Source of the DNA: Sulfurovum sp.
GTDB taxonomy: Bacteria; Campylobacterota; Campylobacteria; Campylobacterales; Sulfurovaceae
Assembly: GCA_027012955.1 (NCBI GenBank)
Contig: JALUYL010000066.1
Coordinates: forward strand, 1-43,103
Length of the DNA: 43,103 nt
Direction of reading: 5' to 3'
In this document: piece by piece, positions 6,767-8,598 of the stretch
How the letters are laid out: every line of letters starts with the position of its first letter
Numbering within the stretch: the stretch's first letter is position 1
The notes under the pieces: model-generated
What the model was told of the DNA's origin: nothing
Seen by the model: only the letters and a program-made list of their open reading frames with translations
Database searches by the model: none
Program-made: the position numbers and the translations under genes

Positions 6767-7786
6767 CTACAGTACCTTTGCCTTACCATCTACCATAGCT
6801 ACCATATCTTCTATGCGTATGCCAAACTCATTGGGTATGTAGATACCTGGCTCTATAGTATAGACCATCCCATCTTCTATGATAGTATCTGATTTGCTAG
6901 AGATGTAAGGCATCTCATGAATATCAAGTCCAACCCCATGTCCGGTTGAGTGTACATAGTACTTCCCATACCCAGCTTTTTCGATGATATCACGTGTAAG
7001 CGCATCCACCTTTTTAGCCTTCATGCCAGAACGTGCTTTGGCTATAGCATTGTCATGTGCTTTGAGTACGGTATCATACGCTTTTTGTATCTTCTTTCGT
7101 TTATAGCTTTGGTTGGTATCGAACATCAGGTACTTGTCTGCCTGCACTGTACGTGTGCGGTCCGAGCAGTAACGCTTATACTTGAGTCCAGCATCTACCA
7201 AAAGTAGGTCATTTTTCTCTAGAACTGTTTCTGTTGGCAATGCATGAGGCTTTGCTGCATTTTTGTTGATAGCGACAATAGGGTCAAAGCTCAACGCATA
7301 CTTACCAAAGTCACCCAAAATACCTTTTGCCTCGTGGGTTAAAGTATATTCATCTTTCCCAAAACCATTTTTTCTAAACTCTTTAGCTAAGTGTTTAAAT
7401 GCCTTAGCCCCAAGTTTCGCAGCTTTGGCGATGATTTTCAACTCTTCATCAGACTTGATGATGCGCTTTTTATGAGAAAAATCTACCTGTGGTTTAAAGT
7501 CTACTTTCACATGAGAACGTACACGTTCAAACCCATCTACCGTCCACTCTTTAGGATCAAAAATCACTTTTTTGACTTTTGCTTTTTTAAGCAAAGTGAC
7601 TGCCTCACCATAAAGATCACCATTTATAATGACTATTGCATCTACCACATGTTCATTGGCATCAAGCGTATAACGGCTGTCCGTAATGAAAAATGCCTCT
7701 TTCCCTAAACGTAGGTAAAGTGCATTGTCACAGCTATAGCCACATTCATAATAGATGGCATTTTCGTCTTTGAGCATGTAGTTCAT
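6767..7786 (-). CDS. M24 family aminopeptidase (Xaa-Pro peptidase-like)
   Basis: LLVDAGLKYKRYCSDRTRT, HSTGHGVGLDIHEMPYIS, YTIEPGIYIPNEFGIRIEDM metal-ligand motifs. Confidence 0.92.
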   Translation of the reverse strand: MNYMLKDENAIYYECGYSCDNALYLRLGKEAFFITDSRYTLDANEHVVDAIVIINGDLYGEAVTLLKKAKVKKVIFDPKEWTVDGFERVRSHVKVDFKPQVDFSHKKRIIKSDEELKIIAKAAKLGAKAFKHLAKEFRKNGFGKDEYTLTHEAKGILGDFGKYALSFDPIVAINKNAAKPHALPTETVLEKNDLLLVDAGLKYKRYCSDRTRTVQADKYLMFDTNQSYKRKKIQKAYDTVLKAHDNAIAKARSGMKAKKVDALTRDIIEKAGYGKYYVHSTGHGVGLDIHEMPYISSKSDTIIEDGMVYTIEPGIYIPNEFGIRIEDMVAMVDGKAKVL

Positions 7787-7810
7787 AGATGACCTTTAGT
7801 GAGTTAGATA

Positions 7811-8080
7811 AAGGGCACCTCCAATAATAGGTAATACCCACAATGGGTTTTGCAAATGTGAGATTGTACAAGAGATTTATGAGTCCTAGCCATAGCTAAG
7901 ACGAAGTAAATATCTTGTGCAAGATTACGTTTGCAAAGCCCACCCAAGGGGCATCACTAGCTTTCGCCTATGCGTTGTTACTCTTTTTTACCTTAGCTAC
8001 GGCTAGGGTTTCAAAAGAGTGCCTAGCCTAGACAAAAGCTAGTGATGTTGTGAGTATCACCTATTATTGGAGGTGCCCTT
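7811..8080. repeat. 270-bp multi-branched palindromic element with three-way-junction geometry
   Basis: Outer inverted repeat 7811-7843/8048-8080 (31/33 matches) enclosing arm 7844-7879/7907-7942 (29/36) and arm 7952-7964/8035-8047 (13/13). Confidence 0.85.
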
Positions 8081-8121
8081 AAGTATAACCCTCCTCTCGG
8101 AGGAGAGGAAGGAGTATAAAA

Positions 8122-8598
8122 CTATTTTTGTTGTGCTTTGGCTTGTTGTTCTTTCATCATCTTCACTTCGTTAAGTATCTGAGTCATACCTACCATCGCC
8201 AAGTGGTAACCAAATGGTCCCATACCTGTGATTTGACCTGCACATACTGGCGCAGTCAATGAAGTGTGTCTAAACTCTTCTCTTTGATAGATGTTTGAAA
8301 GGTGTACTTCAAGCGTAGGTATCTGCACCGCAGCGATAGCATCACGAATAGCGATAGACGTATGTGTATATGCCGCGGGGTTGATGATAATACCATTCGC
8401 ATCACCGATACACTCTTGAATTCTATCGACTATCTCACCCTCTAGGTTGGACTGAAAAAATTCGATTTCAACTTTGTTTTGCTCTGCAAATGCTTTCATC
8501 TGACCATGAATATCTTCTAATTTCATAGGACCATAAATATTTTGCTCTCTCATACCAAGCATATTGAGGTTTGGACCTTGGATTACTACTATTTTCAT
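8122..8598 (-). CDS. aroQ: type II 3-dehydroquinate dehydratase
   Basis: [53 protein letters not shown]. Confidence 0.95.

What the first reader, a model, noticed from the sequence alone, without database searches (positions are those of the whole stretch)
7811..8080. 270-bp Y-shaped (three-way-junction) palindromic element between aroQ and the M24 peptidase gene
A 33-bp outer inverted repeat (7811-7843/8048-8080, 31/33) encloses two more inverted repeats that abut it with no spacer. Arm 1 is 7844-7879/7907-7942 (29/36). Arm 2 is 7952-7964/8035-8047 (13/13), with an inner ACTCTTTT/AAAAGAGT stem and an apical CCTTAGC-TACG-GCTAGGG hairpin. Only 9 nt (7943-7951) separate the arms. The arm tips are near-identical inverted copies (CCTAGCC[A/G]TAGCTAAG, 15/16), so a tip-tip interaction is possible. 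Both outer-stem mismatches become G.U wobbles in minus-strand RNA, while several arm-1 mismatches are wobbles in plus-strand RNA, and the plus-strand apex is a UNCG-type C(UACG)G loop. The transcribed strand is therefore ambiguous. It could be a structured leader/ncRNA or a non-autonomous (MITE-like) element; no coding content is evident.
Basis: seen in the sequence. Interest (0 to 1): 0.68.

Follow-up and report, generated by a model that had tools for sequence, protein, structure and literature searches.

The report
Campylobacterota structured-core mobile palindrome
The 266-bp palindrome is one copy of a small, gene-less jumping element spread through Sulfurovum genomes by IS5-type transposases, and its folded core recurs across the Campylobacterota inside three different kinds of transposon ends, which suggests that the fold itself is under selection.

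Summary
The palindrome is real (RNA fold z = -17.7 on +, -15.5 on -). [quoted passage not shown] The element proper is 7813-8078 (266 bp), flanked by an imperfect 4-bp target duplication (TAAA/TTAA). The same genome holds 7 more copies (88-93% identical). Relatives in Sulfurovum and Nitratifractor hold up to about 22 each. Over 95 copies with ends fixed by the terminal repeat alone, 59 have an exact 4-bp duplication (6.6 expected). 29 syntenic relatives lack this copy, one showing a clean empty site. IS5-family insertion sequences with the same ends and 4-bp duplications exist.

Two things go beyond an ordinary MITE. (1) The same core is found between two different end types in Sulfurovum, and a third in other families; each type matches a different IS5-type transposase group. 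(2) A covariance model of arm 1 finds it in 36 of 298 Campylobacterota genomes (13 genera). In 26 diverse arms, 27 of 34 pairs show double compensatory changes, G.U outnumbers A.C 121:9 on one strand, and a tandem G.A loop and tip TAGCCNNAGCTA are conserved. The fold therefore seems selected as a single strand, most likely RNA. What it does is unknown; host cis-regulation is not supported (37:37 orientation).

The parts
7813..8078 (.). the complete mobile element (266 bp)
   Evidence: ends fixed by the terminal repeat GGGCACC...GGTGCCC and by the 4-bp duplications of 95 copies; empty site in relative G021
7809..7812 (.). left copy of the target-site duplication, TAAA
   Evidence: the empty site in G021 reads TAGA
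8079..8082 (.). right copy of the target-site duplication, TTAA (3 of 4 identical)
7813..7843 (+). left terminal inverted repeat / outer stem (type 1a, GGGCACCTCCAATAATAGGT...)
   Evidence: matches GGGCACCTCTAAAAAC ends of IS5-family elements
8048..8078 (-). right terminal inverted repeat / outer stem
7845..7941 (+). arm 1 of the core: hairpin conserved across the Campylobacterota
   Evidence: covariance model R1, 111 bits; covariation in A4
7862..7863 (+). GA, 5' half of the conserved tandem G.A internal loop of arm 1
7923..7924 (+). GA, 3' half of the tandem G.A internal loop
7887..7898 (+). invariant tip TAGCCATAGCTA (TAGCCNNAGCTA)
   Evidence: TAGC and GCTA invariant in 26 diverse arms
7943..7951 (+). 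small hairpin CCC-AAG-GGG at the junction between the arms
   Evidence: pairs kept in 37-39 of 39 representative copies
7952..8047 (-). arm 2: hairpin related to arm 1 but reading on the opposite strand
   Evidence: covariance model hit 7953-8046 on -, 35 bits, E 4e-6

Best explanation
It is a non-autonomous DNA transposon (MITE). An IS5-family transposase made elsewhere recognises the GGGCACCTCTAATAA-type inverted ends and inserts the 266-bp element into AT-rich intergenic targets such as TTAA, TAAA or TTAT, duplicating 4 bp. Shown: copies, ends, duplications, empty site, matching autonomous elements. Inferred: that these transposases act on it in trans. The core between the ends is a two-armed structured module that is older than, and separable from, any one kind of end. 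Arm 1 has been kept by selection on a single folded strand, most likely its transcript. The likely reason is that a compact RNA hairpin with a tandem G.A loop and a fixed tip binds some factor, or makes insertion next to genes tolerable; this last step is inference. The confidence given is for the MITE part; for selection on an RNA it is about 0.5.
For: Eight copies in the own genome; 24 of 60 relatives carry it; Sulfurovum and Nitratifractor MAGs. 4-bp duplication in 59 of 95 copies against 6.6 expected (maximum 16 in 2000 shuffles), with no excess at 1-3 or 5-8 bp in the main class. 29 syntenic relatives lack the insertion and G021 shows a precise empty site. 18 distinct full copies in complete genome G015 have mean identity 0.991, so recent spread. 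IS5-family elements with the same ends and duplications: L194 (1270 bp, TTAA), L195 (TAAA), and a decayed one in Sulfurovum, L149 (924 bp, ATAT); transposase assigned to IS5. A second end type, GAACCCTCTGAATAA, is matched by L346 (1272 bp, TATT duplication, 351-aa frame) in a Sulfurovum genome, and by L345 and L347. A third, TAGACTTCTTGCAAAAC, is matched by multicopy 918-bp elements with HTH_Tnp_4/DDE_Tnp_4 proteins. All 129 testable copies are intergenic. Fold selection: 63 of 99 pairs compensated in 39 Sulfurovum-type copies; in 26 arms from several families 27 of 34 pairs compensated, covariation score 0.675 against 0.206 shuffled and 0.11-0.17 slid; G.U 121 against A.C 9.
Against: No matching transposase was found in the own, incomplete genome, nor in complete G015 with its recent burst. 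Transposition in trans is not demonstrated. The window copy's duplication has one mismatch. No transcript is shown, and orientation relative to co-directional neighbours is 37:37, which argues against a host cis-regulatory role. TIR-only derivatives of about 50 bp also carry duplications, so the core is not needed for transposition.
Confidence: 0.9

Rival explanations
1. An ordinary IS5-derived MITE whose fold is only a by-product of DNA palindromes: inverted halves are kept complementary by hairpin-templated (quasipalindrome) correction during replication, without selection on any RNA.
For: Palindromic MITEs are common; whole-element covariation in inverted repeats can arise mutationally. The outer stem and arm 2 lean the other way in G.U versus A.C.
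Against: Templated correction should remove G.T and A.C mismatches alike, yet G.U is 13-fold commoner than A.C in arm 1 across families, several wobble pairs are nearly fixed, and unpaired features (G.A loop) and the tip are among the most conserved parts.
Confidence: 0.3
2. The folded strand that matters is single-stranded DNA (a cruciform or replication-fork hairpin used in transposition or recognised by a DNA-binding factor), not RNA.
For: G.T and tandem G.A pairs are also tolerated in DNA hairpins (general knowledge); the element has no orientation preference; the mobile unit itself is DNA.
Against: Ordinary DDE (IS5) transposition uses double-stranded ends (general knowledge); core-less short elements with duplications exist.
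Confidence: 0.2
3. A regulatory leader or terminator of the aroQ-peptidase pair.
For: It lies 26 nt upstream of the M24 peptidase start codon; copies in general sit near starts (median 38 nt).
Against: Absent from this locus in all 29 relatives examined, which keep the gene pair; copies lie beside many different genes in either orientation.
Confidence: 0.03

Closest known systems
Bacterial MITEs derived from insertion sequences (reviews PMC10969869, PMC2229807)
   Same: Short, non-coding, terminal inverted repeats, target duplications, AT-rich intergenic sites, stable stem-loop fold
   Different: The core is conserved across several families of one phylum and is found between at least three different IS5-type end sequences
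IS5-family insertion sequences (NCBIfam NF033581; Pfam PF01609, PF05598, PF13359)
   Same: Closely similar terminal repeats and the same 4-bp duplication for end types 1 and 2
   Different: No transposase gene in the element; the core was not seen inside these insertion sequences
Bcr1, NEMIS/Correia, ERIC elements (named in PMC3733652)
   Same: Described as MITEs; NEMIS transcripts fold and are proposed to be processed by RNase III (PMC2229807)
   Different: Not compared by sequence here; whether any of them has a core carried by several end types was not examined
REP/GTAG and CGTC palindromes, reported in Sulfurovum NBC37-1 (PMC3733652)
   Same: Intergenic palindromic repeats in the same genus
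   Different: 20-40 bp, GTAG or CGTC tagged; no long terminal repeats with 4-bp duplications

Membership tests
MITE | Terminal inverted repeats | tested here: met
   31 of 33 bp
MITE | Target-site duplication | tested here: met
   family: 59/95 exact 4 bp against 6.6 expected; this copy 3 of 4
MITE | Dispersed multiple copies and empty sites | tested here: met
MITE | No coding capacity | tested here: met
   only chance frames under 50 aa over the element
MITE | Ends shared with an autonomous element | tested here: met
   IS5-family elements L194, L195, L149 and, for the second end type, L346
MITE | Mobilisation in trans by that transposase | not testable with these tools
   needs an experiment
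Rfam non-coding RNA families | Score above a family's gathering threshold | tested here: not met
   none for the window or for 7 distant copies; permissive search gave only chance-level hits
REP / RAYT palindromes | GTAG or CGTC tag on a 20-40 bp stem | tested here: not met
   266 bp, ends GGGC/GCCC, 4-bp duplications
Structured functional RNA | Covariation beyond chance on a defined strand | tested here: met
   caution for relatedness of copies
Structured functional RNA | Transcript exists | not testable with these tools
   no RNA-seq available

The most novel reading that the evidence does not exclude
The core is a selfish or useful structured RNA module in its own right. It has been carried through the Campylobacterota by capturing the ends of at least three IS5-type transposon groups, with arms on opposite strands so that a transcript entering from either side makes the sense hairpin first.
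Probability: 0.35. Interest if true: 0.82.

Novelty: new variant of a known kind. Interest (0 to 1): 0.62.

Why it matters
MITEs are usually seen as decayed insertion sequences, defined by their ends. Here the ends differ while the folded core persists across several bacterial families, with compensated base pairs and a fixed loop and tip. If right, the inside is the unit of selection, and a phylum-wide repeat family with an apparently selected structure has no Rfam entry.

Tried and rejected
Rfam at gathering and permissive thresholds: nothing. Viral contigs and phages: no match; plasmids: one, the Sulfurovum mangrovi megaplasmid; distant copies not found on plasmids. A DDE_Tnp_1 search alone did not show the partner; it was found by pairing terminal repeats. 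I first read a self-match of 73-76% as arm 1 against arm 2; one search showed that each arm matches itself, so the kinship of the arms rests only on the covariance model and the tips, and notebook entry 5 is wrong on this. A cis-regulatory role was tested by orientation (37:37) and not supported. Clean tracing of end switches was limited by a poorly resolved core tree. No literature on this family was found in the held library.

Full report
Observation. Neighbours are an M24 peptidase gene (6767-7786, -) and aroQ (8122-8598, -).

It is a dispersed repeat. The own genome holds eight copies, the other seven 88-93% identical to this one. Of 60 relatives 24 have matches, up to about 22 per genome. 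Named records are Sulfurovum, Nitratifractor and other Campylobacterota MAGs (one record labelled Methanospirillum is probably contamination, which was not checked). It was not found in viral contigs or phages, and once among plasmids, in Sulfurovum mangrovi.

It moves like a DNA transposon. With ends set by the terminal repeat alone, 59 of 95 copies have an exact 4-bp direct repeat, against 6.6 from mispaired flanks. Preferred targets are TAAA, TTAT and TTAA. In 29 relatives the peptidase-aroQ pair is kept without the element, and G021 shows the site without the insertion. Complete genome G015 carries copies that are 99% identical on average, a recent burst.

Its likely motors. Terminal repeats paired over about 0.9-1.35 kb led to IS5-family elements with GGGCACCTCTAAAAAC ends and 4-bp duplications (L194 TTAA, L195 TAAA). 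In Sulfurovum itself there are decayed or partial ones (L149, L191, L192). Many MITE copies instead have GAACCCTCTGAATAA ends. These match a second IS5 group, for example L346, an element of 1272 bp with a TATT duplication and an uninterrupted 351-aa frame in Sulfurovum genome G023. Distant copies have TAGACTTCTTGCAAAAC-like ends, which can be read as GAC...GTC flanked by TA. These match multicopy 918-bp elements whose transposase lies in two frames with HTH_Tnp_4 and DDE_Tnp_4 domains.

One core, several ends. On a tree of the core alone, end type 2 needs 19 changes for 22 rows, no better than shuffled labels (105 of 500 as low), and well-supported branches force at least 4. In one well-supported clade almost all rows come from a single genome and carry both end types. 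Either ends are exchanged or cores are homogenised by gene conversion inside a genome; I cannot tell which. The tree is weakly resolved.

The core is old and folded. A covariance model of arm 1 finds matches in 36 of 298 Campylobacterota genomes, in 13 of 58 genera. Distant copies lie within inverted repeats of about 257-272 bp, or 166 bp in one family. Some have type 1 ends with exact duplications (L378 TAAT, L379 TTTC, L386 TTAT). In 26 arms as low as 51% identical to the window arm, 96.4% of pair cells are standard pairs, 27 of 34 pairs have double changes, and no shuffle or slide comes near. The tandem G.A internal loop and the tip TAGCCNNAGCTA are among the most conserved parts.

Strand. 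In arm 1, G.U outnumbers A.C 121 to 9 (39 to 6 at pairs that are mostly Watson-Crick) on the sense strand. A structure kept only as a DNA palindrome should show both equally. Arm 2 leans the other way and matches the model on the opposite strand, as if the two arms were sense on opposite strands. The counts are not independent, because copies share ancestry, and the model was built on that strand; they are strong hints, not proof.

What it does. All 129 testable copies are intergenic, median 38 nt from a start codon. Divergent gaps are somewhat over-represented: 37% of the element-bearing gaps, against 24% of the bases in other gaps of the same loci. There is no orientation preference. Core-less derivatives of about 50 bp, and 24-bp remnants, also carry duplications. 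So the core is not needed to move, and no host regulatory role is implied by placement. My best guess is an RNA hairpin that serves the element or makes it harmless beside genes; its function must be tested.

Noticed in passing
L041:1503-1526, L043:1503-1526, L052:1503-1526: 24-bp palindromes GGGCACCTCTAATAATAGGTGCCC flanked by 4-bp duplications; probably remnants left when the long palindrome is deleted between AGGT direct repeats.
   Followed up: partly
L044, L050, L059, L061, L063 (terminal repeats about 50-55 bp apart): Short TIR-only elements without the core; 10 of 13 short elements (50-186 bp) have an exact 4-bp duplication.
   Followed up: partly
L149:525-1448: Decayed IS5-type element in Sulfurovum genome G023 that also contains what looks like a fragment of an IS200-like transposase.
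   Followed up: no
window 8090-8109: Short G+C-rich inverted repeat after aroQ, kept in G021 beside the empty site; probably the aroQ terminator.
   Followed up: no
L344 (NZ_CP087125.1, 95718-95919): A divergent copy of the element on a 395-kb plasmid of Sulfurovum mangrovi, between TCA-cycle genes.
   Followed up: no
G404, many contig ends: Repeats TAGACTTCTTGCAAAAC about 80 bases from many contig ends, suggesting a high-copy insertion sequence collapsed in assembly.
   Followed up: no
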